Of a stretch of DNA of 64,000 bases, positions 1-15,590 are shown one piece after another; position 1 is the stretch's first letter, and each line of letters begins with the position of its first letter. Below the pieces are notes generated by a model that saw only the letters and a list, made by a program, of their open reading frames with translations, did no database searches and was not told the origin of the DNA. The DNA comes from Apibacter raozihei (GTDB taxonomy: Bacteria > Bacteroidota > Bacteroidia > Flavobacteriales > Weeksellaceae), in contig NZ_CP034930.1 of the NCBI RefSeq assembly GCF_004014855.1, positions 3,019,716 through 3,083,715 on the forward strand, given 5' to 3'. A program made the position numbers and the translations under genes.

Positions 1-721
1 TATTGGTAGTCTGCGACCAACCAATTTTACTACGTTCTCCTGTTATCCATATATACTGGTTATTCCAAACAGTTCCGGGATATTGAGCCCTGCTGTAACC
101 TATCCAAATGTCACTTGTGTTTGTTGTTACCAAGTTTGTTTTCAAGTAATTCCATTCTTCACTTGTTGTAATAACAGGTAAAAAACCTCCGGCTGTTTTT
201 GCAAGGTTAAATGCTTCCTCAAAGTCAATTTCACGATTTATCTTATATCCACAATATGAATGAGAAGCAAATCCTGTATTGGTACTATTTTTTACACATT
301 CCATTTTTGTGGCCTGAATATTGCTATACTCAATAACATCCGGAGATTTGTTTCCATCTCCGTATGGATAATATCCTAGTACGGCTACTCTGATACCGTC
401 AACATAATACTTGGTATATGTTTTTTTTTCTGTCATGGTTCGCCATTGCATTCCATTCCAGAAATAATAACCAGGAGTTAAGTCCGATACAGTTTCAGTG
501 TTATAGATAATCAAGCCTTTTTTAGGGTTATTAATAGGTTCAGACAAGCTCGAATCTACTAATTTTACTTTGGGTCCTAAAAAACCTAAATTTTTCTTTT
601 CCCCACTCGAGACTTCCAACATGGAAGCCGAACTGGGTGAGTCTGTTCCTATTCCAACCTGCGCATAGAGAGAGGGCATAACAAGGCTATTAAACAAGCC
701 TATCGTTATAAGTTGTTTCAT
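1..721 (-). CDS. Secreted C-type-lectin-like protein, C-terminus beyond window edge
   Basis: The reading frame starts at an ATG (719-721) and stays open to the window edge, giving at least 240 residues. It begins with a signal peptide (MKQLITIGLFNSLVMPSLYA) followed by the QVGIGTDSPSSASMLEVSSG head, which is seen on many exported flavobacterial proteins. Residues from about 160 (FEEAFNLAKTAGGFLPVIT, then EEWNYLKTNL and DIWIGYSR) resemble the start of a C-type lectin fold, where a ligand would be bound. The protein is probably exported to the cell surface; a T9SS tail could lie beyond the edge. The ligand is unknown. The gene is read away from a 1.2 kb spacer, and a TAAATTTG box at 871-878 on its strand could be its promoter element. 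Confidence 0.75.
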   Translation of the reverse strand, partial: MKQLITIGLFNSLVMPSLYAQVGIGTDSPSSASMLEVSSGEKKNLGFLGPKVKLVDSSLSEPINNPKKGLIIYNTETVSDLTPGYYFWNGMQWRTMTEKKTYTKYYVDGIRVAVLGYYPYGDGNKSPDVIEYSNIQATKMECVKNSTNTGFASHSYCGYKINREIDFEEAFNLAKTAGGFLPVITTSEEWNYLKTNLVTTNTSDIWIGYSRAQYPGTVWNNQYIWITGERSKIGWSQTTN

Positions 722-1962
722 ATTATATATAATTAATTAATTTATTCTTATCTTATCAGATTACCGCATTGACTTTGATATTCAGATTTGAATATCCATT
801 GTATCTGAAAGTATTTTATTACGAATAATAAGTTGCCAGTTTTTTTATTAAAATATCAAAAATCGAAGTACAAATTTATTATTTTTTTCAAAATAACCAC
901 TTTTAAACCAACTTATTAACAATATTAACAAATATTTAGATTTAAATTCTCATATTATAAATAGTGAAATTTATTTTAATATGTAATTGATATGATTTTA
1001 AACGCTAATGGTTATCATAAATATATTTATATCTTATTTTTAAGATTAAAAATCATAATAAGTGTATTTTATTTTTACATATTAGATAATTAACAATATA
1101 ATTATACATATAAAGACTAAATTGACAGGAATAAGGATTGAAAAAGAACAAATTCAATGAATAGTTTTTTAATTTATTTAACTCTTAGTATAATTTAACT
1201 TTAATAAACTGATTATCTACTTAAAACTTATTTAAAATCAATAGGATCGTTTATATCTTAGTTTATTATATTCTAAAAACTGTTTAATTTTTGTGTGTAA
1301 ATGAAACTCTATGTTTTTGAGTTAATTTAATTTATCCGCTACTTTTAATAAAACTAAATATCAGTGTATGAAATAATTAATTTTAAATACTAACACACAA
1401 AATGTAATTGTATGGTACATTTGATATTTTATATATATTCAAAATAAAATAAATCCAAAAAGCGATAGTTAAATTGAAGGAACTACTGAAAGACTTAATT
1501 TATGCATTGGATATCGTGCATAAAAATAGCTTCAGACTAGCAATGTTAGTATTGTTGGTCATTCTTTTAAAATAATTAAAACAGAATACAACTTTGAACA
1601 TGATATTATTAATATTTCAAGGCCCCAAAACATAAATTTATGCTAAGGCAAAAAACGTTTGATCAAAGATCAAATACATATTACTTACACGATAACCTCT
1701 TTCATCAAGAGGTTATTTATATATACCCATTTTATTGCTTTTTATTTATTTATCCAATAAGTGATTATCTATTTTTTATTAACTCAGGTTTCAGGTATTT
1801 GATTTCTATAAAATTACCTATACTGATAGTTTTATTTCATATTTAATATAGATAAAAGAAAAAAAAGAACAATATTAATTATATACTAATGAAATGATAA
1901 ATATTCAAAATAATAATCTTAATTTTGTAAAGAATATAAAACTATAGCACTAAAAAATTATT
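722..1962. other. Long AT-rich divergent spacer without a convincing gene
   Basis: This 1.24 kb stretch separates two divergent genes and is far longer than neighbouring spacers. The only long open frame (1640-1846) has a composition expected from AT-rich non-coding DNA and no recognisable family. Visible structure: a TAnnTTTG element at 1416-1423 (TACATTTG), a strong hairpin at 1692-1716, and a TAATTTTG element at 1920-1927 that probably serves the downstream response regulator. A frame from about 1474 to 1575 reads KELLKDLIYALDIVHKNS with a hydrophobic end and a stop. It has no ATG and may be a gene remnant or chance. Confidence 0.6.
1692..1716 (+). terminator. Orphan terminator-like hairpin in the divergent spacer
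   Basis: ATAACCTCTT and AAGAGGTTAT form a perfect 10-bp stem around a 5-nt loop (TCATC). The sequence after it is T-rich but not a clean U-tract. No gene ends here on either strand, so it may end an unannotated short RNA starting near the TACATTTG box at 1416-1423. Confidence 0.4.
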
Positions 1963-2610
1963 ATGTACAAAAAAATTATAATCACAGGTGATTTTGGCAG
2001 TTACAATACACCTATTCTCAAAATGATTGAGGAATTAGGTTCTACTACTGCTGAACAAGTTTTCACTCCAAAAGACGCTATTTCAAATATTAGAAATGCT
2101 TTTTTAAAGAATTCCAACTACGAACTACTAATTACTGATTTATCTGCTTCTGAATCATCTGAACATCTTATCTGTGAAAAAAAAGAATTTATCCATCAGG
2201 TCAAAAAAGAATTTCCGGATATAAAAATTATTGTTTTCTCAGTTGAAAGTGACATTTATAAAATTCAGTCATTATTTGAAACTCATGACATTGATGGATT
2301 CGTAACTAAAGGGCCTAAAGATATTGATGATTTAAAAGAGATAATTACCGAAATTTATAAAGGAGGGAAGCATATTTCATATAAAAATACCAATTTTTAT
2401 GAATTTACAAATCAGGACATTGAAATAGCAAGCTTATTGGCTAAGGGAATGACTATTGAAGAAATATCTGCGTATTTAAAAAAAAATGAGATAAACCCCA
2501 ATAGTGAAAGTTATATAAATAAAAGGCTCATGATACTCAGACAGCAGACAGGCGCGAGCAACACTACCCATTTACTTTTTATTCTTGCTAATTGGGGGCT
2601 TATTGAATGA
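1963..2610 (+). CDS. Orphan response regulator, receiver plus LuxR-like HTH
   Basis: This 215-residue protein looks like a NarL/FixJ-type response regulator. The first 125 residues form a receiver domain: a phosphorylatable Asp at 59 (ELLITDLS), Ser93 at the conserved Thr/Ser position and Lys116 (FVTKG). The usual N-terminal acidic pair is reduced to a single Asp10. The C-terminal part (from about 148, FTNQDIEIASLLAKGMTIEE) matches the spacing of a LuxR-type helix-turn-helix (T..E.e...L...G.s..EIA), but the recognition helix is divergent. No histidine kinase gene lies nearby, so the partner is unknown. The gene is monocistronic, and a TAATTTTG box 35 bp upstream is the likely -7 element. The family call is good; the target genes cannot be inferred. 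Confidence 0.7.
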   Translation: MYKKIIITGDFGSYNTPILKMIEELGSTTAEQVFTPKDAISNIRNAFLKNSNYELLITDLSASESSEHLICEKKEFIHQVKKEFPDIKIIVFSVESDIYKIQSLFETHDIDGFVTKGPKDIDDLKEIITEIYKGGKHISYKNTNFYEFTNQDIEIASLLAKGMTIEEISAYLKKNEINPNSESYINKRLMILRQQTGASNTTHLLFILANWGLIE

Positions 2611-2841
2611 TAACTGAATCTGCTTTATTTTAATAAAAAAATGACACTTTTTAAAGTATTTATTTCTATTAAAAAATTAAAAAAATAAAGTACATTACCA
2701 TACCAATGGCTAAAAAAGAATTATTAATAATATAAAATACAAGATTATTTATTTTTAAAAATACCTTAAAAATCAACGATAAATTAAATTATTCGTATTT
2801 TTTTGCTTATTTTTTTAATCATTTATTAATAAATTTGTATT
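2611..2841. promoter_or_regulatory. Spacer before umuDC with a -7 box close to the start
   Basis: This AT-rich spacer holds no gene. A TAAATTTG box at 2830-2837 matches the Bacteroidota -7 element, with a TTTG at 2802-2805, slightly further upstream than usual. If used, transcription would start almost at the GTG codon of umuD, giving a nearly leaderless message. I could not identify a LexA operator by eye. Confidence 0.4.
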
Positions 2842-3309
2842 GTGAAATCAGGCTCAATACATAAAAACAAAACACTTGAAATATTTTCTTTTGAAATCAC
2901 TCATAAAAAACAAATTTCTTTTGTGGATGATGGGGTTAAGGCAGGATTTCCTTCTCCTGCCTCAGATTTCCCTATGCAGAAAATAGATTTAAATGAAGAA
3001 CTTGTACGAGATCCGGAAACTACTTTCTTAGCTCGTGTAAATGGAGACTCTATGAAGGACCTGCGTATATTCGACGGAGATTTGATTATTGTAGATAAGG
3101 CTTTGGAGCCTCAAAACGGCAATATAGCAGTTTGTTTCATTGATGGAGACTTCACATTGAAACGGTTAAAAATAGTAAAAGAAAAAGGGCTTATAAGAGA
3201 AATTATATTGCTTCCGGAAAACAAAGAGTACAAGCCTATTTATGTTACTCCTGAAAATGACTTTATTATCTGGGGAATTTTAACTTATAATATTATCAAG
3301 TTTATATAA
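2842..3309 (+). CDS. umuD: UmuD-like translesion polymerase V subunit (S24 peptidase)
   Basis: This 155-residue S24-family protein is the self-cleaving accessory subunit of DNA polymerase V, which permits mutagenic bypass of lesions after SOS induction. The cleavage site is Ala34-Gly35 (VKAGFPSP). The catalytic serine is Ser70 in NGDSM and the lysine is Lys107 in FTLKRL, so both members of the Ser-Lys dyad are present. It lacks the N-terminal HTH of LexA, and the length suits UmuD. The start is a GTG: no in-frame ATG occurs before residue 45, which lies past the cleavage site. The stop is followed after one base by the polymerase subunit, so the two are co-transcribed. Confidence 0.9.
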   Translation: MKSGSIHKNKTLEIFSFEITHKKQISFVDDGVKAGFPSPASDFPMQKIDLNEELVRDPETTFLARVNGDSMKDLRIFDGDLIIVDKALEPQNGNIAVCFIDGDFTLKRLKIVKEKGLIREIILLPENKEYKPIYVTPENDFIIWGILTYNIIKFI

Positions 3310-3310
3310 A

Positions 3311-4573
3311 ATGTATGCTCTTGTTGACTGTAATAATTTTTACGCCTCATGTGAAAGGGTTTTTAATCCTTCACTCAGAAATGTTCCCATATGTATATTA
3401 AGTAATAATGACGGATGTGTTATTTCCCGATCTGATGAAGCCAAAAAGTTAGGAATCCCCATGGGCGTTCCTGCATTCCAGGTAGATAAACTTTTTAAAA
3501 ACCATCAGGTAAAAATATTTTCTGCCAATTTCATTCTGTATGGAGATTTAAGCCACAGGGTTATGAATATTGTAAAACGCTACAGTTCTCAGGTAGAAAT
3601 TTATTCTATAGATGAGGCATTTCTTAATTTAAAAGGACTGAAAAATATAAATCTGGAAGAACATTGTTTATCCATGCGTAATTATATTTTTAAGGGAGTA
3701 GGTATCCCCGTTTCCATAGGTATTGCTCCTACTCAAACACTAGCAAAGGCAGCCAACTTAATCGCTAAAAAATATTCCGTTCAAACAAAATCTGTTTATC
3801 TTATGGATACTCCCGAGAAAATAGAAAAAGCGCTTAAATGGCTCAACATCGAAGATATCTGGGGAATTGGAAGACGGCTCAATAAACGCTTTTCAACCAT
3901 GGGTATAAGAAAAGCCTGGGACCTAGTTAATATGCCAGATACATTTATCCGGAAAGAAATGGGAATTATAGGAATAAGGATGATTAATGAATTGAAAGGC
4001 ATACCTCAACTAGAACTGAGTCCTCCCTCAAAAAAGAAAACTATTGCAACGACCAGAACTTTTGATATTATGACGGAAGATTTAGCTCCTTTAAAAGAAA
4101 GAGTTACTACTTTTGCAGTAAAGTGTTCGGAACGTTTAAGAAAGCAACAATCCTGCTGTAATTATATTACGGTTTTTCTACATACTAATTTTTTCAGGGG
4201 TGACCATACTCAATACCATCCTTCATATACCATTACTTTACCCAACCCTCACAATAGTGCCATAGAACTTAGCAAGTATGCACAAAAGGCCTTGGATGTT
4301 ATTTATAAAAAAGGATATTTGTATAAAAAAGCAGGAGTTATAGTTTCCGGCTTAATTCCGGAACAAACCAGACAAATCAGTCTTTTTGATGAAGATAACT
4401 ATATGAAACACGCTCCCTTGATGGAGACTATTGATAAAATTAATAAAAAACTCCATTGCGATAAAATAAAATTAGCATCTCAGGATATTAAAAGAACCTG
4501 GAAAATGAAACAGAATTTATTATCTCAGCATTATTCTACCAATATCAACCAAATTATCCGGGTAAAAATATAA
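3311..4573 (+). CDS. umuC: UmuC-like Y-family DNA polymerase V catalytic subunit
   Basis: This 420-residue Y-family polymerase carries the N-terminal metal-binding motif (MYALVDCNNFYASCERVF, Asp6), the conserved NDGCVISRSDEAK segment and the catalytic SIDEAF motif (Asp101, Glu102). A C-terminal UmuC extension follows the little-finger region and contains QISLFDED near residue 363, a plausible sliding-clamp-binding motif. It synthesises DNA across damage together with cleaved UmuD. It starts one base after the umuD stop. Length and motifs are those of a complete, functional protein. Expression is expected to follow the SOS response. Confidence 0.95.
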   Translation: MYALVDCNNFYASCERVFNPSLRNVPICILSNNDGCVISRSDEAKKLGIPMGVPAFQVDKLFKNHQVKIFSANFILYGDLSHRVMNIVKRYSSQVEIYSIDEAFLNLKGLKNINLEEHCLSMRNYIFKGVGIPVSIGIAPTQTLAKAANLIAKKYSVQTKSVYLMDTPEKIEKALKWLNIEDIWGIGRRLNKRFSTMGIRKAWDLVNMPDTFIRKEMGIIGIRMINELKGIPQLELSPPSKKKTIATTRTFDIMTEDLAPLKERVTTFAVKCSERLRKQQSCCNYITVFLHTNFFRGDHTQYHPSYTITLPNPHNSAIELSKYAQKALDVIYKKGYLYKKAGVIVSGLIPEQTRQISLFDEDNYMKHAPLMETIDKINKKLHCDKIKLASQDIKRTWKMKQNLLSQHYSTNINQIIRVKI

Positions 4574-4876
4574 TTTTCATTTTAGACACAGGAAATTTGT
4601 TTTACGATTCATGATTAAATATAAGAATTACTTTTTTTTCCTAAAAAATTATTTCATGCCAATCAACGATTCGACAATTTTATTATTTCTCTCCCTAAAC
4701 AAATATTTATTTGGCGTAAAAAAACATTTCAGAAGGTAATTTTTAATCCATTACCTATCTAATTAATCAATAACCTACTATGTCTTAGCTCATATTAAAT
4801 AATAAATAAAAAATGAATTGTAAGAATAAAAATAAACAAAAATTAATATCTTTGAATTATTATTTTAAATAAATTC
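4574..4876. promoter_or_regulatory. Spacer with promoter element for the TerB/ATPase/helicase operon
   Basis: No gene is visible. TATCTTTG at 4847-4854 fits the -7 consensus 22 bp upstream of the next ATG. A TTG at 4818-4820 is somewhat too far away to be a good -33 element. A weak inverted repeat, AGGTAAT at 4734-4740 with ATTACCT at 4750-4756, could end the umuC transcript but has no U-tract. Confidence 0.4.
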
Positions 4877-6763
4877 ATGATATTCTTAATTATTCTATTC
4901 ATAATAGTTATAATTGTTCTTTTTAAAAATAATGCATCTACAACTAAAAAAGCCTCTTCGGATAAGTTAGTTCGGCGATCAGTAAATTCAGTAGAAAATA
5001 TTTCTAATGAAGGACATTCTATAAACTGGCAAAAAAAAATTTTCACTCATGGGGAAATATTAACCCCTAGAGCTAATGTTCCTATTTGGGGTAATAGATA
5101 CATAAACTCTTATGTTGACTTAGAGAGTGCTACTACAGAACAAAAAGACTTTTATCTGCTATTTAAAGAAGGCTTTCTCTATGGAGATTATTATAATTTA
5201 TATGGAAATTGGAATTATGCTTTCATTTTATTATTTGATTTATTAAATGAGTATAAAATTCATAAAAATATACAGGTTTTAGAAAATCAATTGAATTTGT
5301 TAGGCTTTTATTACGGTAAAACCAAATCTTATTGTGTTTCATTTTTAATCAAAAAGCTTGAAATTATTGGTGATTATGCAAAAATTAATGAACTCATTAA
5401 TGAATATCCTTCCGACAATTATAGTTATGAAAATGAAAATCCGAGCAGTATATACGGCAAAAAACTTAAGTTAAATGCTAAAGAAACTGAACTATTAGAC
5501 CAGCTATGTATTTCTAAAAATACTTTCACTGAAATAGAAATGTGTTTGGAAGAGACTCTCAAACTTTATTTATTATTATTTAAAAATTTAAATGATACCA
5601 GCTTTGAGGGTGGAAAAAATATTGAACAGATATTGGCTGAAATCTCAGATCTTTATATTAAAAAACATTACAAGTATAAAACTGATAGTCATAATTATAA
5701 TTATGCTTTTGAAGATACAATCAAATATTTTCATCAAGCTATATTTAAAATCTGTGAAAATACCGTACGTGAATCTTATGGACATAAAAGAAAATTAAAT
5801 GAGGATTTTTTACTACATGTTCCTGAAGTAAATAGTCTTTACCAGAATAAAATAGCCCCCTTTATTACGGATACGTTGTCCAGGCTAATTCCAACAATTC
5901 TTCCTCCTGATGATGATACAGAAACAATGCTGTACACAATGAATACAACCCGTTGGAAAACAAAGTTTAATGAAATTACTGAAGGTTTTAACGGCAAACC
6001 TGAAGAATTTTCAAAAGCAATCATACGCTTAGGAAAACATAATGAAAATAATCCCTCGGTTGAAAATATTTTTTTTGATTCCTCTAAGTTTATAGCTAAA
6101 TATGATAAAGAAACTGCCTTAACACTATATATCCATTACTTATATTATGATTTAAAATCTTCGACTTTTAATAATAAACCTTTAACAAAAACGATTCAAA
6201 AAAGTTTATTTAAAAACAATGAGCAACTTCATGAATTTGAAATAATTATAGATGACTTTATTAAAACCCGAGATTTAAAAAGCACATTACAAAAAATCCC
6301 ATCCATCTATATATCAAAACGAAAAAGAATTCATCTCAATAAAGAGATTATAAAAGAAGTCCAAGAACAACATTCAGAAACTGTTGAACTACTCAATGAA
6401 TATTTACAGGATGAATATGAAAGTGAAGATTTATCTATAAAATCGCAAGATATAAATAATGAGGAAATCAAAATTGAAATTACATCTAAAAAGCCAGTTG
6501 ATTTTACAAAGTCCAATTATGTAAACGAAATAAATTTAACATCTAACCAGATAGATGTTTTAAACTTTTTTTCGAAAAGTAACCTGTGTATTTCCTTCGA
6601 AGATTTTGAAGCTTATGCAAAAGAAAAAAACTTTTTAAAAAATCATGTAATAGATAGTATCAATGAAATTTATTACGATACTTTAGATGATATTTTAATT
6701 GAAGAAGAAGAAGAATTTTACACAATTTTAGAAAACTACTATCAAAAAATAACACTCTCATGA
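4877..6763 (+). CDS. Membrane-anchored TerB-N/TerB-C-like protein, first gene of three-gene operon
   Basis: This 628-residue protein begins with a hydrophobic segment (MIFLIILFIIVIIVLF) that should anchor it in the inner membrane with the rest in the cytosol. Residues about 55-140 (PIWGNRYINSYVDLES, then YNLYGNWNYAFILLFDLLNE) resemble the TerB-N region. The last 75 residues (NQIDVLNFFSK, FEDFEAYAKE, INEIYYDTLDDILIEEEEEF) match the TerB-C pattern of an acidic end after an INE.a.D..gD.liEE motif. The middle is helical with no motif I know. TerB-N and TerB-C proteins are known to occur beside ATPase and helicase genes; the biochemical role is unknown. The stop overlaps the next start (ATGA), so translation is coupled. 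The domain call is by eye and moderate. Confidence 0.6.
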   Translation: MIFLIILFIIVIIVLFKNNASTTKKASSDKLVRRSVNSVENISNEGHSINWQKKIFTHGEILTPRANVPIWGNRYINSYVDLESATTEQKDFYLLFKEGFLYGDYYNLYGNWNYAFILLFDLLNEYKIHKNIQVLENQLNLLGFYYGKTKSYCVSFLIKKLEIIGDYAKINELINEYPSDNYSYENENPSSIYGKKLKLNAKETELLDQLCISKNTFTEIEMCLEETLKLYLLLFKNLNDTSFEGGKNIEQILAEISDLYIKKHYKYKTDSHNYNYAFEDTIKYFHQAIFKICENTVRESYGHKRKLNEDFLLHVPEVNSLYQNKIAPFITDTLSRLIPTILPPDDDTETMLYTMNTTRWKTKFNEITEGFNGKPEEFSKAIIRLGKHNENNPSVENIFFDSSKFIAKYDKETALTLYIHYLYYDLKSSTFNNKPLTKTIQKSLFKNNEQLHEFEIIIDDFIKTRDLKSTLQKIPSIYISKRKRIHLNKEIIKEVQEQHSETVELLNEYLQDEYESEDLSIKSQDINNEEIKIEITSKKPVDFTKSNYVNEINLTSNQIDVLNFFSKSNLCISFEDFEAYAKEKNFLKNHVIDSINEIYYDTLDDILIEEEEEFYTILENYYQKITLS

Positions 6764-8082
6764 TAAATATTAAGCCTAAAGAAGCCACAGCTATTATTAA
6801 TTCACTAATCAGCGGAGTTGTACCTAAAATAGGAGTGCAACATATAACTGTTGGAAGATCCGAAGAAATTACTGCTTTTGTTTCCGCCTTGGAAGATGTT
6901 AAGAACGGACAAAGCCTGGTTAAATTTTGGATAGGTGATTTTGGTTCGGGAAAATCATTTATGCTACATCTACTAAATACGGTAGCCCTTAAACAAAAAT
7001 TTGTAGTTGCTAATGCGGATTTTACTCCTGAAAACCGTTTATATTCCAATGATGGAAAAGCTGTATCTTTATATAAATCCATCATGGATAATATTGCTAT
7101 ACAAACTAAACCGGAAGGGGGTGCGTTGGCTATTTTAATGGAAAAATGGATTGAACAGATCATTATAAAAACAGCTCAGGAAAACCTCATTCCAACGTTG
7201 GAAATACGAAATGAGAAGTACCTTGATTTAATCAGTACCAATATAATGAAAACCATCAATGAAATCACCGAAACTGGAGGTTTTGATTTTGGAACGGTGA
7301 TCATAAGATATTATGAAGGCTACATTAAAGACGATGAACAGCTTAGAAGAAATGCCCTGAAATGGCTGAAAGGTGAATACAGCACAAAAACAGAAGCCCG
7401 TCAGGATCTTGGCATTCGTGAAATAATTAACGATCAGAATTACTACGATATGCTCAAAAATTTCTGTAAGTTGTTTGTAAGCATGGGATATAGTGGATTT
7501 ATGATTAATCTTGATGAGGCTATAAATCTGTATAAAATATCTACCTCTGCCATGAGGGAAAAGAACTATGAAAAAATATTAGCTATTTATAATGATTGTT
7601 TCCAAGGTAAAATATCTCATCTATTCTTTAATTATGCGGGGACAAAAGACTTTTTAGAAAATGAACGCAGGGGATTATTCAGCTATCATGCTTTAAAATC
7701 AAGATTGGAAACCAATAAGTTTGAGACACTGGAAATAAGAGATTTTGCACAGCCAGTTATTCGGCTTATGCCACTGAACCACAATGAAATTTTTGTTTTA
7801 TTAAAAAAGTTAAAAGAAATTTTTAATTTTAATTACAAGATTGTTGTCGATATTTCAAATGAAGACATACTCGCTTTCATGGAAGAAATATTCAATAAAC
7901 CAGGCGCATCAGAGTTCTTAACACCTAGAGAAGTCATTCGGGATTTCCTAAATATTTTGAATATCATCCGACAAAATCCGATGGTAGATAAAACCCAGTT
8001 ATTTGGAGAAATTGAAATTACTGACGAACGTCCGGATGAAGATAGTTTATTAGACAAACTTGAGGGTATAGAAGAGCTATAA
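6760..8082 (+). CDS. BrxC/BrxD-type (DUF2791) P-loop ATPase
   Basis: This 440-residue P-loop NTPase has Walker A GDFGSGKS (residues 59-66) and Walker B FMINLDEA (Asp252, Glu253). The pattern after Walker A, FMLHLLNTVALKQKFVVANADFTPE, is that of the BrxC/BrxD (DUF2791) family, the ATPases of BREX-type phage defence and of related small cassettes. The length is close to BrxD, much shorter than BrxC. It probably couples ATP hydrolysis to action of the neighbouring helicase on DNA. Its start lies within the stop of the TerB-like gene and its stop overlaps the helicase start (TAATG), so all three are made together. No PglX, PglZ or other BREX core gene is visible nearby, so this is not a standard BREX locus. 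Confidence 0.75.
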   Translation: MINIKPKEATAIINSLISGVVPKIGVQHITVGRSEEITAFVSALEDVKNGQSLVKFWIGDFGSGKSFMLHLLNTVALKQKFVVANADFTPENRLYSNDGKAVSLYKSIMDNIAIQTKPEGGALAILMEKWIEQIIIKTAQENLIPTLEIRNEKYLDLISTNIMKTINEITETGGFDFGTVIIRYYEGYIKDDEQLRRNALKWLKGEYSTKTEARQDLGIREIINDQNYYDMLKNFCKLFVSMGYSGFMINLDEAINLYKISTSAMREKNYEKILAIYNDCFQGKISHLFFNYAGTKDFLENERRGLFSYHALKSRLETNKFETLEIRDFAQPVIRLMPLNHNEIFVLLKKLKEIFNFNYKIVVDISNEDILAFMEEIFNKPGASEFLTPREVIRDFLNILNIIRQNPMVDKTQLFGEIEITDERPDEDSLLDKLEGIEEL

Positions 8083-10220
8083 TGTCTTTTGAATTACTTT
8101 CAGAACCTATCAGAAAATATATCAGAGATAAAAGATGGGAAGAGTTAAGACCTATTCAGGCAGCAGCAATTGCTCGTATATTAACGACTGATAATAATTA
8201 TATACTTGCATCTAAAACTGCCTCCGGCAAAACGGAGGCTGCCTTTCTTCCTATTCTATCTACTGTTAATTTTAATGAATCAGGTGTTCAGGTTTTATAC
8301 ATCTCGCCTTTGATAGCTTTAATCAACGATCAGTTTTTACGTATTGAAGAACTTTGTAAATATTTAGAAGTTCCGGTTGTCAAGTGGCATGGAGAAGCAA
8401 ATAAAAGTCAAAAAAATAAACTCCTTATTGATCCTAAAGGAATAGTTTTGATTACGCCTGAATCATTAGAAGCCATGTTCGTAAATAATTCATATCATGT
8501 CAGGCATTTGTTTTCCAGTTTAAAATTTATGGTCATTGATGAAATTCATTCTTTCATTGGTACTGATCGTGGAATACAACTGATGTCTATTATTTCCCGG
8601 TTAAACGACAATAGCAGTTCTCCCTCTCGCATCATTGGACTTTCTGCAACTATCGGAGATTTTGAGGAAGCTAAAAAATTTACCGGTCGCTATGATGAAA
8701 CAAAAGTTCTTTTAGACAAAACCACTAACAAGGTTCAATGTTATTTTAAATACTTTACGAGTGATAAGTCGGAACTTCCTTTAGATATATTAAAAGATAT
8801 TTATTTGGAAACTCTAAATAATAATGTTTTAATTTTTCCCAACAGTAGAGGAAAGGTGGAAGAAATAGCCGTTAAACTAAAAAAAATTTCAGAACGTGTA
8901 GGTAAATACCAAAATTATTTTTCACATCATTCTTCGATTGACAAAGATGTTCGTGAATACATAGAATTTTTTGCCAAAAATAATAAACGTGAAAATTTTA
9001 CTATTGCATGTACTTCAACTCTGGAACTGGGAATAGACATTGGTTCTGTAGATAAAGTGATTCAAATAGATGCAACACACAGCATAGCCTCATTAATACA
9101 GCGTATAGGAAGAAGCGGAAGAAAGAAAGATGCCTCAAGTAAGCTTATACTTTACTCCACTAATTCGTGGAGTTTATTACAATCAACAGCTACCTGGCTT
9201 TTATACATGGATGGATTTCTGGAACCTCCTTTATCTGTAAAAAAACCGTACGATATATTAATTCATCAGATACTGTCTATAGTTAAAGAAGGTACAGGTA
9301 TAAGTATAAATAACCTGATAAAAAAAATTGAAAAAAATTCTGCTTTCATAAACATATCTGTGGAAGAAATTAAAGAGCTTATATCTTATTCTATAGAGAA
9401 TAAAATAATAGAAAAAATAGGCAGTGAAATCATTATGGGTATAGAGGGTGAAAAAATTGTAAATAACCGTAATTTTTATAGCGTTTTTAAAACTGAAAAT
9501 AATTTTAAAGTCATTAATTCAGGAAACACGATAGGAGAATTACCATTTTCACCACAAATACAAGTTGAGGAGAATATTTTCCTGGCTGCACGTGTATGGA
9601 AAATAAAAACTATTAATTTTAAATCTCACCGAATCGAAGTCTGTCCAGCTACTGATGGTAAAAAGCCAAAATTTTTTGGAACCGGTGGAGAAGTACATTC
9701 CCAAATACGAAAAAAAATGTTGGAAATCCTTACTTCTAATGAGAATTATGAATTTCTAGATATTGCCAGCTATGAAGAATTGGAACTATTAAGGAAAAAG
9801 TTTAAAGTTTTCAACCTGAATCCGAATACTGAAAACAGACCTGTATCCATTAAGGGTATACAACTGACATGGTATACGTTTGCAGGCTCCAGAATTAACA
9901 GGACACTAGAATTATTATTTGAAATAGCGGGCATACCATATTCAATGGACAAACAAGAAAGTACCTTTCAACTTCAAACAACAGATTTAAAATGGAATAA
10001 TTTAACACATATACTCTTTAACTCTATGGAAAATATTGATCAACAACTTCTTTGTTTTTTGGAAAAACATCCTTCTATCATTGAGTTTTCTAAATGGAGT
10101 TTTTTACTTCCTAAAAAGTACCAGATTTACATTTTAAAACAAAAATATTATGATTTTGAAAGTACTGCAAACTATTTAAAATCTATAAAATTAGTGGTAT
10201 CTCACAATCAGCCCTACTAA
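8082..10220 (+). CDS. Lhr/BrxHI-like DExH-box superfamily 2 helicase
   Basis: This 712-residue SF2 helicase shows all core motifs: LRPIQ (Gln26), motif I SKTASGKTE (Lys50), motif II DEIH (153-156), motif III LSAT (187-190), and motif VI QRIGRSGR (340-347) preceded by STLELGIDIG. The DEIH box and motif VI neighbourhood are those of Lhr-type helicases, to which the BREX-associated BrxHI belongs. The 350-residue C-terminal part is unlike full Lhr, which is far longer. It should translocate on or unwind DNA using ATP. It is the third gene of a coupled operon with the TerB-like protein and the BrxD-like ATPase, which suggests a shared complex. A tRNA gene follows on the opposite strand. Confidence 0.8.
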   Translation: MSFELLSEPIRKYIRDKRWEELRPIQAAAIARILTTDNNYILASKTASGKTEAAFLPILSTVNFNESGVQVLYISPLIALINDQFLRIEELCKYLEVPVVKWHGEANKSQKNKLLIDPKGIVLITPESLEAMFVNNSYHVRHLFSSLKFMVIDEIHSFIGTDRGIQLMSIISRLNDNSSSPSRIIGLSATIGDFEEAKKFTGRYDETKVLLDKTTNKVQCYFKYFTSDKSELPLDILKDIYLETLNNNVLIFPNSRGKVEEIAVKLKKISERVGKYQNYFSHHSSIDKDVREYIEFFAKNNKRENFTIACTSTLELGIDIGSVDKVIQIDATHSIASLIQRIGRSGRKKDASSKLILYSTNSWSLLQSTATWLLYMDGFLEPPLSVKKPYDILIHQILSIVKEGTGISINNLIKKIEKNSAFINISVEEIKELISYSIENKIIEKIGSEIIMGIEGEKIVNNRNFYSVFKTENNFKVINSGNTIGELPFSPQIQVEENIFLAARVWKIKTINFKSHRIEVCPATDGKKPKFFGTGGEVHSQIRKKMLEILTSNENYEFLDIASYEELELLRKKFKVFNLNPNTENRPVSIKGIQLTWYTFAGSRINRTLELLFEIAGIPYSMDKQESTFQLQTTDLKWNNLTHILFNSMENIDQQLLCFLEKHPSIIEFSKWSFLLPKKYQIYILKQKYYDFESTANYLKSIKLVVSHNQPY

Positions 10221-10321
10221 TGTTTGATGTTAAAGCTTTGGATTTATATCGAAAAAACAGAAATAAATATTTATACAACGGGTAGAAAAAGTTAGAATAT
10301 CGTTTTAACATTACAATATTG

Positions 10322-10405
10322 TGCTCACGACCGGATTCGAACCGGTACATCCGTACGGACACCACCCCCTCAAGATGGCGTGTCTACCAATTTCACCACG
10401 CGAGC
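10322..10405 (-). tRNA. tRNA-Leu (anticodon GAG)
   Basis: On the minus strand the sequence folds as an 84-nt class II tRNA. The acceptor GCTCGCG pairs with CGTGAGC before the discriminator A. The anticodon stem CCATC/GGTGG encloses the loop TTGAGGG, giving anticodon GAG. A long variable arm and the GGTTCGAATCC T-loop are present. CCA is not encoded. It lies just after the helicase operon, convergent to it. Confidence 0.95.
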
Positions 10406-10549: not shown

Positions 10550-11218
10550 CTATAATGTATCAAGTAAACTTCTCATTTTACGAATATTTTCAACCATATC
10601 ACCAGAGAAAATTGCTTTTCCTGCAACAATAATAGTTGCTCCGGCCTGAACTACTTGCTTTATATTATCCATTGTTATATTCCCGTCCACTTCAATATCT
10701 GCCGATTTATCAATTTCATGAAGTTTTTTTTGTATCTCAGATATTTTATTTATTGAATCGGGAATAAAACTCTGCCCTTCCAATCCCGGTTCTACAGTCA
10801 TTAACTGCACAACATCTATAGGCATTAAAAGGTTTTCTGTAAGAACATCTAAAGAGGTTTCCGGTTTTATGGCTAGTCCTACTTTTTTACCCTCTTTTTT
10901 TATGCTATTCAAAGTTCCCGTTAAATCTTTACAAGCTTCAAAATGAACTGTTATGACATCTGATCCTGCTTCAGCCATTTTTTTTATAAAGCGATGCGGC
11001 TCCTGTACCATCATATGAACATCAAATTCTAACTTGGTAGATTGACGTATACTTTGAATCATTTTCATTCCCATAGATAAATTAGGAACGAATGTACCAT
11101 CCATAACATCAATATGTACACTATCTGCCCCTACTGTTTCCATCATTTTCAGCTGTTTATCCAAAAAGCGATAGTCGGCTTCCAATAATGAAGGTGCCAG
11201 TTTAATTCTTTTTTTCAT
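10550..11218 (-). CDS. rpe: Ribulose-phosphate 3-epimerase family protein, pentitol operon
   Basis: This 222-residue TIM-barrel epimerase interconverts D-xylulose 5-phosphate and D-ribulose 5-phosphate. Metal-binding residues are visible: His35 and Asp37 (HIDVMDG), His68 (DVHMM) and Asp178 (IEVDGN). The start APSLLEAD is typical. The phosphate loop reads VEPGLEGQSF instead of the common VNPGFGGQSF, so a dedicated paralogue or a related sugar-phosphate epimerase (allulose-6-phosphate type) is possible. It is the last gene of the xylulokinase operon, 171 bp after the dehydrogenase, with a hairpin in the gap. In this context it feeds xylulose 5-phosphate into the pentose phosphate pathway. Confidence 0.85.
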   Translation of the reverse strand: MKKRIKLAPSLLEADYRFLDKQLKMMETVGADSVHIDVMDGTFVPNLSMGMKMIQSIRQSTKLEFDVHMMVQEPHRFIKKMAEAGSDVITVHFEACKDLTGTLNSIKKEGKKVGLAIKPETSLDVLTENLLMPIDVVQLMTVEPGLEGQSFIPDSINKISEIQKKLHEIDKSADIEVDGNITMDNIKQVVQAGATIIVAGKAIFSGDMVENIRKMRSLLDTL

Positions 11219-11284
11219 GTATTAAATCTTATATTTTATTTTTCAACGCCAACACATATTAACTTTATTATAATCAATTAAATA

Positions 11285-11311
11285 ACCCTCTCTTTGTGTT
11301 AAAGAAAGGGT
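11285..11311 (-). terminator. Hairpin between dehydrogenase and epimerase genes
   Basis: ACCCTTTCTTT and AAAGAGAGGGT on the minus strand form an 11-bp stem with one G-U wobble and a 5-nt loop. The following sequence is only moderately U-rich. It may reduce read-through into the epimerase gene or protect the upstream message. Confidence 0.4.
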
Positions 11312-11389
11312 ATATTCAATATCGATTTCAATAAAATGAATCTTTATTATTTATAATATTCACTTAAAAAACATTAAAATAATTAATCT

Positions 11390-12445
11390 TTAATCAATTT
11401 TGATAATTGCTTTAACCACATTTGATTTATCGTAAATACAAGCTTCAAAAGCATCCTGAATCTGATCCAGCGAATATTCATGAGTTATAATCTTTTCTAA
11501 AGGAATTAGTCCACTTTCCACCGATGCTATTGCTTTAGGAAATGTATTTACAAATCTGAACTGTGATTTTATTCTGGCTTCTTTGGCCATAAACAATCCA
11601 AAATTGTACGTAATTTCTTCTTCAGCAGCCATTCCTACCAAAACGATCAATCCACCCTGACAGACTACATGCGGCGTCTGGGCTATAGTTACAGAATTGC
11701 CTGCTGCTTCAAAAACTACATCGGCTCCTCTATTACCAGTTATACGATTAATTTCGGCTAACAAATCTTTTTCTCTTCCGTTAATCACATAATCAGCTCC
11801 TAATTCTTTAGCCTTATCAAGACGTATACTTTCCAGATCACATACAATAACTTTACTAGCCCCTCTCGCTTTACAACACATCAATATCAATAAACCAATA
11901 CATCCTGCACCAAGAATTACTACAGTGTCTCCTACAGTAACTTCACCCAATTGCGCAGAATACATACAAGTAGACAAAGGTTCTATCAAAGCACCTACCC
12001 GGGTACTAATATTTTTGGGTAATCGATAGCATAGATCGGCCGGAAAGGCCAGGTATCTTTCATAACATCCTTGAACCGGTGGAGTTGCTAAGAATTTGAC
12101 GTCAGGACATAAATTATATCTTCCTGATTTACAAAATTCGCATTTTCCACAGGTAATACCCGGTTCTACACAGACCCTGTCTCCTGTTGCCAAATGTGTA
12201 ACTTCACTTCCAACTGCAATTACGGTTCCTGCACACTCATGTCCCAGCATAAATTCCTTATCTTCAACGACAAAAGTTCCACACCTGCCATCATGAAAGT
12301 AATGAACATCTGAACCGCAAATACCTACATATTCTACTTTGATAAGCACTTGATAGGTAGTTATTTCCGGCACAGGTATCTCTTTGATGATCATGTGATC
12401 TATTCTATCCATAAATGCTCCTTTGTTTTTTACATTCGTTGTCAT
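11390..12445 (-). CDS. Zinc-dependent polyol dehydrogenase (xylitol/sorbitol type)
   Basis: This 351-residue medium-chain dehydrogenase oxidises a polyol to its ketose with NAD. The catalytic zinc site is Cys43, His69 and Glu70 (GICGSDVHYF, GHECAG). The structural zinc site has four cysteines at 99, 102, 105 and 113. The Rossmann motif is GAGCIG (near 174), and an Asp at the end of the second strand (VCDLE) favours NAD over NADP. The sequence is of the sorbitol/xylitol dehydrogenase type. Between a polyol importer and xylulokinase, the likely substrate is xylitol or D-arabitol, giving D-xylulose. An internal Met12 has an AGGAG-like sequence before it, but starting there would remove the first strand, so the longer start is preferred. 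Confidence 0.85.
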   Translation of the reverse strand: MTTNVKNKGAFMDRIDHMIIKEIPVPEITTYQVLIKVEYVGICGSDVHYFHDGRCGTFVVEDKEFMLGHECAGTVIAVGSEVTHLATGDRVCVEPGITCGKCEFCKSGRYNLCPDVKFLATPPVQGCYERYLAFPADLCYRLPKNISTRVGALIEPLSTCMYSAQLGEVTVGDTVVILGAGCIGLLILMCCKARGASKVIVCDLESIRLDKAKELGADYVINGREKDLLAEINRITGNRGADVVFEAAGNSVTIAQTPHVVCQGGLIVLVGMAAEEEITYNFGLFMAKEARIKSQFRFVNTFPKAIASVESGLIPLEKIITHEYSLDQIQDAFEACIYDKSNVVKAIIKID

Positions 12446-12503
12446 AACTATTGGTTTTAAAGTTTTAAGTCATCAGTAAAGGCAAATGAATTTTCATATC
12501 AAG

Positions 12504-14045
12504 TTAAAGTTTCGCTAAAGCTGTAAAATCAGCTCTTAAAGAATCACACATACTATCATAAACTGTATGAAACTTTTTATAAACTACACTGTCTTCCAAA
12601 TCGGGAAGTAGTGAATCTTTTTCTTTAATAAATTGATCACAGGCATCCTGAACAGAAGAATAAATTCCTACTCCGGTACCTGCAAGAATGGCTGCACCAT
12701 ATGCCGGACCTTCTTCATTTTCAAGTGTACAAACTTCACATTCGTAAAGAGCAGCCATCATTTTTCTCCAGACAGGACTTCGGCTTCCTCCACCGCAAGC
12801 ACGTACAGAAACCAGACTTACCCCCTGCTCTTTTAACAGGTTATTGCAATCTGCAAGACAATAGGTTATCCCTTCCATAATCGCCCTGAGCATATGTGCC
12901 TGTGTGTGCACCACATTCAAGCCTAAAAAAGCACCTCGATAAAGAGGATCTATGTGCGGGGTACGTTCTCCCATTAAAAATGGTAAATAGATAAGCTTTT
13001 CACTTCCGATAGGAACTGTCTGTACCATATTCATCATTGCATCGTAAAAAGTTATACCTTCCTGCTCTGCTTTTTCAACTAAATCAAGACAAAATTTATT
13101 TTTAAACCATTCGATAGAAAGAGCTCCGGATTGCGGTCCTCCCATCGTGTGCCAACACCCCGGCACTGCACTACAACAAAGGTGTAAACCTCCACTGGGA
13201 ATTTCAGTATATTCATCTAAATGTGAATATAATACTGCAGATGTTCCTATAGAGGTAAATGCTTGTCCCTGTCTAACCACCCCGGTTCCTATACCGGCGC
13301 AGGCATTATCACTTCCCCCTGCAACTACAGCACAATTAACTGTTAATCCGCATTTATCTGCTATTTCAGGTAAAAGGTATCCGGTTATTTCCTGACTTTC
13401 ATACACATCTGCCAACAGTTTGGGATCTATCTGAAGAACATTGATAATTTCTTCTGACCAGCATCTGTTTTTTACATCCAATAGCTGCATTCCCGAAGCA
13501 TCTGATACATCTGTTGCAAATTTCCCGGTCAATATATATCTGATATAATCTTTAGGTAATAAAATATGTTTGCAACGAGAATAGTTTTCCGGTAAGTTTT
13601 TTCTTACCCATACTATTTTTGCAGCTGTCCAACCTGCCAGCGGAGGATTTGCTGAAATTTCAATCCATTTTTCCATTGGCATTAAGTCCAGCATTTCTTC
13701 TGCTTCCTGACTACTCCTCTGATCACACCAAATGATAGCATCACTAATAAGATTATTTTCCTCATCCAGCATAACTAACCCATGCATTTGTCCGGAAAGT
13801 CCTATCCCTAATATATCCTCTGACTTTACTCCTGATTTTTTAACTACTTCCTGTATTGTAGATAAAACAGCTTCTTTCCATACTTGTGGACTTTGTTCTG
13901 CCCATCCGTTTTTAGGCTGGTTCATGGAGTATAATTGTTTGGCTGTAGCTATAGTTTTACCTTGTTCATTTATAAGAACAGTTTTGGTAGCACTGGAGCC
14001 TAAATCGACACCAATAACATATTTATTTATTTTTTGAAATTCCAT
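12504..14045 (-). CDS. xylB: Xylulokinase
   Basis: This 513-residue FGGY-family carbohydrate kinase phosphorylates D-xylulose to D-xylulose 5-phosphate with ATP. The N-terminal phosphate motif is VIGVDLGSSATKTVL. The xylulokinase signature GLSGQMHGLVMLDE followed by AIIWCDQR is clear, with the second ATP-binding motif ACGGGSRSPVWRKMMA near residue 430. Length is normal for XylB. It follows the MFS importer gene by 21 bp and precedes the dehydrogenase by 58 bp in one operon. No xylose isomerase gene accompanies it, which argues that the cells make xylulose by polyol oxidation here. Confidence 0.95.
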   Translation of the reverse strand: MEFQKINKYVIGVDLGSSATKTVLINEQGKTIATAKQLYSMNQPKNGWAEQSPQVWKEAVLSTIQEVVKKSGVKSEDILGIGLSGQMHGLVMLDEENNLISDAIIWCDQRSSQEAEEMLDLMPMEKWIEISANPPLAGWTAAKIVWVRKNLPENYSRCKHILLPKDYIRYILTGKFATDVSDASGMQLLDVKNRCWSEEIINVLQIDPKLLADVYESQEITGYLLPEIADKCGLTVNCAVVAGGSDNACAGIGTGVVRQGQAFTSIGTSAVLYSHLDEYTEIPSGGLHLCCSAVPGCWHTMGGPQSGALSIEWFKNKFCLDLVEKAEQEGITFYDAMMNMVQTVPIGSEKLIYLPFLMGERTPHIDPLYRGAFLGLNVVHTQAHMLRAIMEGITYCLADCNNLLKEQGVSLVSVRACGGGSRSPVWRKMMAALYECEVCTLENEEGPAYGAAILAGTGVGIYSSVQDACDQFIKEKDSLLPDLEDSVVYKKFHTVYDSMCDSLRADFTALAKL

Positions 14046-14066
14046 ATAATTATTTTTTTATGATTT

Positions 14067-15401
14067 TTATATATTGTTATCTGCAGTTATTGGCTTTTCT
14101 TTAATTTTACTTCCATATACTGCATACCAAAACATAACTAATTCGCAGATAATTATGAGTCCCCAGGTCCATTGCCAGGAACCCCAGAAATCTGCTAAAA
14201 AGCCTTGTAAAACAGGAAACACAGCTCCACCAAAAACCCCCATCATAAAAACTCCGGAAGCTTTAGAAGTGTATTTACCTAAATCTTTAACAGCCAAAGT
14301 AAATATACATCCCCACATAACGGAATGGCATAATCCTACGGAAACCAAAATCCAGAGATTATTTGTAATTATAGCTATTAATGTTAATAGAGCTGCTACC
14401 ACTGTAGCAATCATCAACTGTAAACGTGGAGAAATGTTATTAAATAATCCGGAAATAATCCTACCAATCATCATTCCTCCCCAATAAAAAGTAGCTAATA
14501 AAGCTGGAATACCTAAATCAATATTTCCAACCATTAAATGTGTTTTTCCGAAAAAAGCCAATCCGCTACCTGTACGTTCTAATTCCATTGCGTGCAGATT
14601 TACATTGGTTCCTACTCCCATTTCGGCACCTACATAAAAAAAGATGGCAACTACTCCCCATTTTAGATGGCTAAATGACCATATATTTCTTTGTTTATTA
14701 TCTTCTTTATCTATTCTTGTATTTTTAATATCCGGCAATGCTATTCGACCGACAATTATTCGGGTAGATGCAATACATAGAGCAATAAGCAAGAAAGGAA
14801 CCATTAGCTGACCTGCATTGAAATCATTCATAGCAGCTCCTCCAAAAATGACTGCTGTTACGAAAAAAGGAGCAATTGTAGTTCCAAATGAATTCGCGGC
14901 ACAGGTAATATTAACTCTTTGTAATGTGGATGTATTGGGAATAACATATGCAGATACGTAGGGAATAATTACGGTTTGTACTAATGAAACTGAAGAGCCC
15001 AAAAGAAAAGATCCTAAAATAAAAATAAAAAATCCGTAAGGAACTTTTCCATCTCCTATGTTTATAACATATTGACTATAATTTTCAGCTACCCATGAGG
15101 AAAGGCAGGTTACAAGTAGAGCAATTACCATTAAAACCAGACCTCTTAATAGTGGTGTTTTATAGCCGTGCCGATTTATCCATTTGCTACTAATTAAGGA
15201 ACTGATTGCAAATCCTGAAAAAAAACAAAAGGAAATAAGATTAGTTAAGGTATTTTTAAGCTCTCCTGCTTGATCCAGAAAAAGAATTTTCAAGGGACCC
15301 TGACATTGACCGTTAATAGTGGTCATAAAGCCTAAAATAAAAAAAACGAAGGTTAAGACAAGATAGGGTCCCAATGTATTGGAAACTTTTGTATCATTCA
15401 T
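14067..15401 (-). CDS. FucP-like MFS sugar/polyol importer
   Basis: This 444-residue, roughly 12-helix major facilitator resembles the FHS family (FucP-type sugar:proton symporters): the start PYLVLTFVFFILGFMTTINGQCQGPL and the polar MMIGR motif opening the second half. It is the first gene of the pentitol operon, so its cargo is probably xylitol, D-arabitol or D-xylulose entering by proton symport. It is divergent from the LacI regulator with operator-like boxes in the shared spacer, which suggests induction by the transported substrate. The substrate is inferred from context only. Confidence 0.8.
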   Translation of the reverse strand: MNDTKVSNTLGPYLVLTFVFFILGFMTTINGQCQGPLKILFLDQAGELKNTLTNLISFCFFSGFAISSLISSKWINRHGYKTPLLRGLVLMVIALLVTCLSSWVAENYSQYVINIGDGKVPYGFFIFILGSFLLGSSVSLVQTVIIPYVSAYVIPNTSTLQRVNITCAANSFGTTIAPFFVTAVIFGGAAMNDFNAGQLMVPFLLIALCIASTRIIVGRIALPDIKNTRIDKEDNKQRNIWSFSHLKWGVVAIFFYVGAEMGVGTNVNLHAMELERTGSGLAFFGKTHLMVGNIDLGIPALLATFYWGGMMIGRIISGLFNNISPRLQLMIATVVAALLTLIAIITNNLWILVSVGLCHSVMWGCIFTLAVKDLGKYTSKASGVFMMGVFGGAVFPVLQGFLADFWGSWQWTWGLIIICELVMFWYAVYGSKIKEKPITADNNI

Positions 15402-15479
15402 AGCAAGTAATAATTTGTGGTTATAGACGTAAATTTATAACATGGATAAAAATAAAATCACCGTTTTAAAAAAAATTAG

Positions 15480-15525
15480 TTTGGAAACGTTTGCGGGAAC
15501 GTTTCCAAATACTGCAAACGTTTTC
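15480..15525. promoter_or_regulatory. Three LacI-type operator boxes, two inside a perfect inverted repeat
   Basis: Three boxes with the LacI-family core AACGTTT lie in the divergent spacer: GGAAACGTTTGC (15483-15494), GGGAACGTTTCC (15495-15506) and GCAAACGTTTTC (15514-15525). TTTGGAAACGTT (15480-15491) and AACGTTTCCAAA (15498-15509) also form a perfect 12-bp inverted repeat. Box centres are 12 and 19 bp apart. They are the obvious binding sites for the adjacent regulator. Confidence 0.8.
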
Positions 15526-15539
15526 ATTTATTTCAAATA

Positions 15540-15571
15540 TTTGGTTAAATCTCACGCAAAATGTACTTTTG
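15540..15571 (+). promoter_or_regulatory. Promoter of the LacI regulator gene
   Basis: TTTG at 15540-15543 and TACTTTTG at 15564-15571 are separated by 20 bp, matching the Bacteroidota -33/-7 consensus (TTTG, TAnnTTTG). The ATG follows 19 bp later. The operator boxes lie just upstream of the -33 element. Confidence 0.65.
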
Positions 15572-15590
15572 CTGAATTAAGCCGGAATTT

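What the first reader, a model, noticed from the sequence alone, without database searches (positions are those of the whole stretch)
4877..10220. Compact three-gene TerB-like / BrxD-type ATPase / Lhr-like helicase system
Seen: the three genes overlap (ATGA, TAATG) and so form one translationally coupled unit, with a -7 box just before it and a tRNA gene just after it. The ATPase (Walker A at 59-66, Walker B at 252-253) and the helicase (DEIH, QRIGRSGR) resemble BrxD and BrxHI of BREX, but no methylase, PglZ or BrxC is present. The first protein appears TerB-N/TerB-C-like and carries an N-terminal membrane helix. Known: BrxD/BrxHI-type pairs and TerB-domain proteins are linked to phage or stress defence. 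Inference: a membrane-tethered DNA translocase or surveillance machine. A tRNA neighbour and umuDC upstream fit an accessory island.
Basis: partly seen in the sequence, partly recalled or inferred. Interest (0 to 1): 0.7.

Follow-up and report, generated by a model that had tools for sequence, protein, structure and literature searches.

The report
Membrane-anchored Shango anti-phage system variant
The three genes are a bacterial anti-virus system already known as Shango, here in a divergent form whose first protein keeps a membrane anchor but shows no recognisable TerB metal-binding core; this gives a testable hint that the system works at the cell membrane.

Summary
The trio at 4877-10220 is real: three intact, overlapping genes. 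PADLOC profiles name all three as Shango (SngA 6e-38, SngB 4e-163, SngC 1e-207), an anti-phage system with published plaque-assay activity (PMC10250203, passages). It is not a BREX fragment. The host genus is probably Apibacter. The trio is accessory: SngB is in 2 of 9 genus genomes, own included; in 3 of 7 relatives' tRNA-Leu loci fetched, the landmarks that flank it here lie about 160-355 bp apart instead of 12.5 kb. Beyond known Shango: SngB+SngC place it in a clade separated by a long branch from the enterobacterial/archaeal type. In that clade 44 of 44 SngAs scanned (window included) match TerB_C and none TerB_N or TerB, while 6 of 7 other-type SngAs from the same phylum have all three. 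SngA usually carries an N-terminal membrane anchor (40 of 61 in this clade; 11 of 12 other-type plasmid SngAs), and its form varies (bare helix, SH3b plus helix, TM2, zinc ribbon, none): anchored/unanchored needs at least 10 changes on the tree. Favoured mechanism, inferred: a membrane-tethered ATPase-helicase that stalls phage DNA.

The parts
4877..6763 (+). sngA: N-terminal membrane helix (residues 1-19), low-confidence linker, helical domains, C-terminal TerB_C domain (residues 481-625)
   Evidence: PADLOC SngA 6.2e-38; Pfam TerB_C 1.8e-19; AlphaFold model mean pLDDT 80.3, pTM 0.51
6760..8082 (+). sngB: P-loop ATPase of the BrxC/BrxD family
   Evidence: PADLOC SngB 4.1e-163, BrxD 1.9e-42; Pfam BrxC_BrxD 9.2e-144
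8082..10220 (+). sngC: superfamily 2 DEAD/DEAH (BrxHI-like) helicase
   Evidence: PADLOC SngC 1e-207, BrxHI 2.7e-129; Pfam DEAD 2.3e-35, Helicase_C 2.1e-16
10321..10405 (-). tRNA-Leu(GAG), boundary of the accessory stretch; no second copy of its 3' end in the window
   Evidence: ARAGORN; 1 match only, with up to 3 mismatches allowed
1..10320 (.). Window part of the 12.5 kb stretch between the left landmark gene (L109:17198-17539) and tRNA-Leu; in G001, G002 and G004 the two landmarks are about 160-355 bp apart
2842..4573 (+). umuDC-like pair; neighbour in the same accessory stretch, not part of Shango
4847..4854 (+). possible Bacteroidetes -7 box TATCTTTG (consensus recalled); weak
   Evidence: matches in the window not above shuffles

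Best explanation
The trio is a Shango-type anti-phage system of a divergent clade. SngA is probably held in the inner membrane by its N-terminal helix with the rest in the cytoplasm (inferred from the helix and the K/R residues after it). SngA recruits the SngB ATPase and the SngC helicase through its helical and TerB_C parts (inferred). SngB, an ATPase related to BrxD, would load or regulate SngC, and SngC would translocate on or unwind invading or replicating phage DNA and stop its replication (inferred). Pfam shows no nuclease domain in the three proteins, so a block rather than degradation is the likelier outcome (inferred). Shown here: homology, intact catalytic motifs, operon conservation, the anchor pattern and accessory distribution. 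Not shown: any activity, complex, topology or DNA substrate. The confidence given is for the identity as a Shango-type defence system; for the membrane-tethered mechanism I would give about 0.4.
For: All three PADLOC Shango profiles hit in operon order. Of the 61 loci found by SngB, 60 have an SngA match and 58 an SngC match; L070 and L083 end at contig edges, L085 and L086 were not examined further (in L086 the SngB frame is cut short). Catalytic motifs are conserved. Pseudomonas PA14 Shango gave modest (10-100-fold) plaque reduction on many but not all phages tested and protected liquid cultures; an E. coli Shango gave about 10-fold on two phages, as cited there (PMC10250203, passages read). 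SngC, BrxHI, DruE and DpdJ were reported as a potentially distinct defence-helicase clade (PMC12278908, passages read). SngA anchor: 40 of 61 same-clade proteins and 11 of 12 other-type plasmid SngAs. Presence of SngB is patchy: 2 of 9 genus, 45 of 296 family and 22 of 395 phylum genomes, own genome included in each.
Against: 18 of 61 same-clade SngAs have no anchor and 3 carry zinc ribbons instead, so membrane attachment is not universal. The TerB core that is listed for Shango is not detected. No PDB relative of SngA at E<=1, and for SngB only designed proteins near E 0.1. Of 10 neighbouring proteins of the window genome scanned against PADLOC (3, 7), 9 had no match and one a weak VakA match (1.9e-6), so there is no sign of a larger defence island. 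Direct evidence of defence is from other members of the family only.
Confidence: 0.85

Rival explanations
1. A degraded or minimal BREX relic: BrxD and BrxHI left over after loss of BrxC, PglX and PglZ.
For: SngB and SngC match BrxD (1.9e-42) and BrxHI (2.7e-129).
Against: The Shango profiles score far higher (541 against 144 bits; 690 against 430 bits). The BrxD equivalog cut-off of 350 bits is not reached (146.5). The same three-gene unit recurs across the 61 loci. The only PglZ match in the genome is a 514 aa response-regulator-PglZ protein about 630 kb away, the architecture of PorX (recalled). PglX and BrxC were not sought in the whole genome.
Confidence: 0.03
2. A DNA-repair or stress operon (with the upstream umuDC) rather than phage defence.
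For: umuDC lies directly upstream; an E. coli plasmid Shango also has a Y-family polymerase gene upstream (L115); Ter domains were long linked to stress responses (recalled).
Against: umuDC stands without an adjacent trio in 4 of 4 fetched relatives, and the 19 kb fetched around the second Apibacter trio holds no umuDC match. Patchy distribution and SngB-like genes on 690 of 72,556 plasmid records, 541 of them typed conjugative (the weakest hits include annotated BrxD), fit defence better.
Confidence: 0.08
3. The trio defends mainly against plasmids or other mobile DNA rather than phages.
For: SngB-like genes are common on conjugative plasmids, where competition between plasmids is a known role of some defence systems (recalled).
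Against: Published assays show anti-phage activity of family members; plasmid exclusion was not tested here.
Confidence: 0.1

Closest known systems
Shango (SngABC) of Pseudomonas aeruginosa PA14 and E. coli
   Same: Three-gene order TerB-family protein, BrxD-like ATPase, DEAD/DEAH helicase; all three PADLOC profiles match; the E. coli plasmid copy L115 also has an N-terminal membrane helix. The PA14 sequence itself was not fetched.
   Different: Separate clade on the SngB+SngC tree; about 37% SngB identity to enterobacterial plasmid copies; SngA without detectable TerB_N and TerB domains.
BREX (BrxD and BrxHI)
   Same: Related ATPase and helicase.
   Different: A TerB_C protein takes the first position, no PglZ beside it, and the Shango profiles score higher.
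Hachiman, Druantia and Dpd helicase systems
   Same: SF2 helicases as core; SngC grouped with BrxHI, DruE and DpdJ in PMC12278908 (passages).
   Different: Hachiman pairs its helicase with the nuclease HamA (abstract); Pfam shows no nuclease domain in this trio.
Ter (tellurite/stress) systems
   Same: TerB_C domain.
   Different: No TerB core detected; no other Ter-family match among the neighbours scanned with Pfam.

Membership tests
Shango | SngA-family protein | tested here: met
   PADLOC SngA 6.2e-38; 44 of 44 same-clade proteins scanned, window included
Shango | SngB-family ATPase with Walker motifs | tested here: met
   PADLOC SngB 4.1e-163; motifs
Shango | SngC-family DEAD/DEAH helicase | tested here: met
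   PADLOC SngC 1e-207
Shango | A-B-C order in one operon | tested here: met
   overlapping genes
Shango | TerB domain (PF05099) in SngA, as listed for Shango in PMC10952713 (passage) | tested here: not met
   Not found at E<=1 in the window protein nor at E<=0.001 in any of 44 same-clade proteins; profile comparison of the segment at that position gives probability 0.3%. Fold comparison lists no TerB structure but is inconclusive. TerB_C is met. Hence filed as a variant, not as a canonical member.
Shango | Anti-phage activity | not testable with these tools
   shown for PA14 Shango in PMC10250203 (passages)
BREX | BrxD above the equivalog cut-off | tested here: not met
   146.5 bits against cut-off 350
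BREX | PglZ (PF08665) partner | tested here: not met
   The only PglZ match in the genome is in a response-regulator protein at 2,389,854, about 630 kb from the trio
BREX | PglX methylase and BrxC in the genome | not tested
   the whole genome was not searched for them
Accessory island at a tRNA gene | Empty site in relatives | tested here: met
   3 of 7 fetched relatives' tRNA-Leu loci have the left landmark about 160-355 bp from the tRNA, 12.5 kb here; the other 4 show no landmark on that side
Accessory island at a tRNA gene | Direct repeat of the tRNA 3' end | tested here: not met
   no second copy within the window; the 2.2 kb of the stretch that lie left of the window were not searched for it
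Accessory island at a tRNA gene | Integrase gene in the stretch | tested here: inconclusive
   none recognised among its reading frames, but the frame at window 2-721 was not scanned with profiles

The most novel reading that the evidence does not exclude
Shango is a membrane-bound defence machine whose SngA N-terminus is an exchangeable localisation or sensing module (bare helix, periplasmic SH3b domain plus helix, TM2, cytoplasmic zinc ribbon, or none), and whose TerB metal-binding core is dispensable and was lost or replaced by a helical-repeat-like domain in one large clade. In this reading the complex waits at the membrane or envelope where phage DNA enters and uses SngB-SngC to stop it there.
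Probability: 0.35. Interest if true: 0.6.

Novelty: new variant of a known kind. Interest (0 to 1): 0.4.

Why it matters
A 2026 review lists the mechanism of Shango as unknown (PMC12926258, passage read). A natural clade without a detectable TerB core, and repeated change of the SngA membrane module, turn two open questions into simple experiments: is the membrane anchor needed for protection, and is the TerB core needed at all.

Tried and rejected

Limits. The anchor classes rest on a hydropathy threshold plus motifs, with four rows corrected by hand before counting (L063, L069, L118, L123, recount) and three same-clade loci without a readable N-terminus left out (L068, L074, L083), as was L116 of the other type. 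Start codons were taken as the first ATG of the frame. Among the 18 unanchored rows, the first 140 residues of the stop-to-stop frame stay below the threshold of 1.7, but L049 (1.63) and L078 (1.52) are borderline. Three of the 12 other-type plasmid SngAs are near-identical enterobacterial copies. The tree is a quick one; its own output warns of long branches meeting, among them the join between the two types, and of odd letter make-up; 5 rows were dropped for short or missing SngB or SngC (L033, L070, L083, L085, L086). The 61 loci were found by SngB patterns taken from the window, so they are biased to its own clade; 43 of them plus the window, chosen for completeness, were used for the domain counts. 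The 7 other-type SngAs are those fetched out of 15 other-type SngB genomes (14, 1). That the anchor pattern and the TerB-less clade are not in print rests only on paper searches (40 of 2,920 listed), 17, 29, 60, 105 and 106 in an open-licence library; the 2022 report of Shango (Millman et al., recalled) was not seen.

Mended on checking: the count of scanned relatives (43 plus the window), the PglZ distance, the neighbour count, the region of the profile comparison, and the reading of the plasmid hits.
Full report
WHAT IS THERE. The three genes are at 4877-6763, 6760-8082 and 8082-10220 on the + strand and overlap as ATGA and TAATG. Gene 2 has Walker A at 59-66 and D252/E253; gene 3 has DEIH at 153-156 and QRIGRSGR at 340-347. 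Gene 1 begins with a 19-residue hydrophobic stretch (mean hydropathy 2.67) that the structure model draws as a helix, followed by a low-confidence linker at residues 20-64. tRNA-Leu(GAG) follows at 10321-10405 on the other strand.

WHAT IT IS. PADLOC profiles name the three proteins SngA (6.2e-38), SngB (4.1e-163) and SngC (1e-207), the Shango anti-phage system. Pfam gives TerB_C for the first, BrxC_BrxD for the second, DEAD and Helicase_C for the third. The BREX profiles score lower, and the NCBIfam BrxD cut-off is not reached. The only PglZ match of the genome is in a response-regulator protein about 630 kb away. Shango was tested in Pseudomonas PA14: modest, 10-100-fold plaque reduction for many, not all, phages and protection in liquid culture (PMC10250203; passages read).

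HOST AND DISTRIBUTION. The second-best trio lies on G008 contig C4 of 155,469 bases, the same length as contig CALYQD010000004.1, labelled uncultured Apibacter, which gave L026, so the window genus is probably Apibacter. SngB matches were found in 2 of 9 genus genomes, 45 of 296 family genomes and 22 of 395 phylum genomes, own genome included each time. Of those 22, 6 are of the window's type (78-100% identity), 14 of the other type (40-43%) and 2 are weak (25%). In plasmid records 690 of 72,556 have an SngB match, the weakest of them annotated as BrxD; in phage records none of 50,697.

ACCESSORY POSITION. The trio of G008 (L026) is 90% identical in SngB but 64% in SngA and 69% in SngC, lies about 1.8 kb from a tRNA-Asn, and none of the window's other reading frames matches the 19 kb fetched around it, apart from one overlapping sngB on the opposite strand. 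I fetched the tRNA-Leu loci of 7 of the 8 relatives. In 3 of them (G001, G002, G004) a conserved gene lies about 321, 355 and 161 bp from the tRNA; its orthologue in the window genome (L109:17198-17539) is 12.5 kb away, and the trio lies in between with umuDC, a regulator and three secreted reading frames, at least one lectin-like. The other 4 loci show no such landmark on that side. No integrase was recognised and no repeated tRNA end was found in the window. On the other side of the tRNA, G003 has the orthologue of window gene 16991 at about 411 bp, against 6.6 kb here. So this tRNA appears to be flanked by accessory DNA on both sides. The regulator-umuDC cassette is found elsewhere, with no trio next to it, in 4 of 4 relatives fetched for it, so it is a neighbour and not a component.

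A SEPARATE CLADE WITHOUT A DETECTABLE TerB CORE. A tree of SngB plus SngC (72 rows, quick method) splits the window's type (59 rows) from 13 plasmid-derived sequences of E. coli, Klebsiella, alphaproteobacteria, archaea and others across a branch of 1.58. In 44 SngAs of the window's type (43 relatives and the window), TerB_C is found in 44, and TerB_N or TerB in none at E<=0.001. In the other type, 4 of 4 plasmid SngAs scanned have TerB_N, TerB and TerB_C (in L111 the TerB match, 21.1 bits, is below Pfam's cut-off of 24.4), and of 7 from the same phylum as the window 6 have all three and one (L132) lacks TerB. In this sample the architecture follows the clade, not the phylum. The segment of the window type that lies where TerB would be is a well conserved helical domain (mean column identity 67%), modelled at pLDDT 87. 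It does not match the canonical profile (probability 0.3%) and no solved structure matches it significantly; a degenerate TerB fold is not excluded.

THE MEMBRANE MODULE. I classed the SngA N-termini by hydropathy and motifs, with four rows corrected by hand; the recount is. Of 61 readable same-clade proteins: single N-terminal helix 31, SH3b plus helix 7, SH3b plus TM2 1, TM2 1, zinc ribbons 3, none 18. That is 40 of 61 with a membrane anchor. Of 12 plasmid SngAs of the other type: helix 9, TM2 2, none 1; three of these are near-identical. Pfam supports SH3_3 in 7, TM2 in 2 and double zinc ribbon in 2 of the 44 scanned. In the 18 unanchored rows the first 140 residues of the stop-to-stop frame hold no stretch above the threshold, two being borderline. 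On the tree, anchored versus unanchored needs at least 10 changes and the full set of classes 18. So the anchor is a frequent and exchangeable part of SngA, present also in the E. coli plasmid copy. I did not find this described in the papers I could search; the 2022 report was not seen.

HOW IT PROBABLY WORKS. The K/R residues after the helix suggest that the bulk of SngA is cytoplasmic (inference). The SH3b form would put a small domain in the periplasm (inference). SngB, by kinship to BrxD, is expected to be a DNA-linked ATPase; SngC, by kinship to Lhr-type helicases and BrxHI, a DNA helicase or translocase (family knowledge, recalled; no assay here). Pfam shows no nuclease domain in the three proteins. 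The reading I favour is a membrane-tethered machine that engages phage DNA and stops its replication without cutting it.

VERDICT. An ordinary identification (Shango) with an informative twist: a sister clade that lacks the recognisable TerB core, and a swappable membrane module. Novel as a variant, moderate interest.

Noticed in passing
L109:17639-19558 and window 2-721: Three neighbouring secreted-looking reading frames inside the same 12.5 kb stretch; the first matches Pfam Lectin_C (6e-10), the second gave no Pfam match, the third was not scanned but looks alike by eye.
   Followed up: partly
window 10550-16601: Sugar operon with a second ribulose-phosphate epimerase (at most 43% identical to any match in relatives, 36-38% over full length) between tRNA-Leu and gene 16991; G003 has only about 411 bp there.
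   Followed up: partly
SngA relatives such as L028, L034, L041: A short motif DDSIIDV follows the anchor or starts the protein in many SngAs, also in forms lacking the next domain; it is degenerate in the window protein.
   Followed up: no
L034, L040, L045, L049, L056, L064, L079, L080: SngAs whose match to the window protein begins only at about residue 160-193, as if the N-terminal helical domain were missing.
   Followed up: no
L046:7557-9590: About 2 kb between the SngB and SngC matches, where most other loci have a few bases; possible insertion.
   Followed up: no
L085:2944-5008 and L086:8001-8516: Odd SngB frames without an SngC match: an over-long frame in L085 and a cut-short one in L086.
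   Followed up: no
L115:1-1130: A Y-family DNA polymerase gene lies upstream of Shango on an E. coli plasmid too, as in the window; two cases only.
   Followed up: no
L111 and L117 (haloarchaeal plasmids): Shango followed by metallophosphoesterase and SMC-type genes in both archaeal plasmids fetched.
   Followed up: no
L104:13654-14961: Homing-endonuclease-like gene near the Shango of the second Apibacter genome.
   Followed up: no
L112 and L121: PD-(D/E)XK nuclease gene directly after or close after SngC on two alphaproteobacterial plasmids.
   Followed up: no
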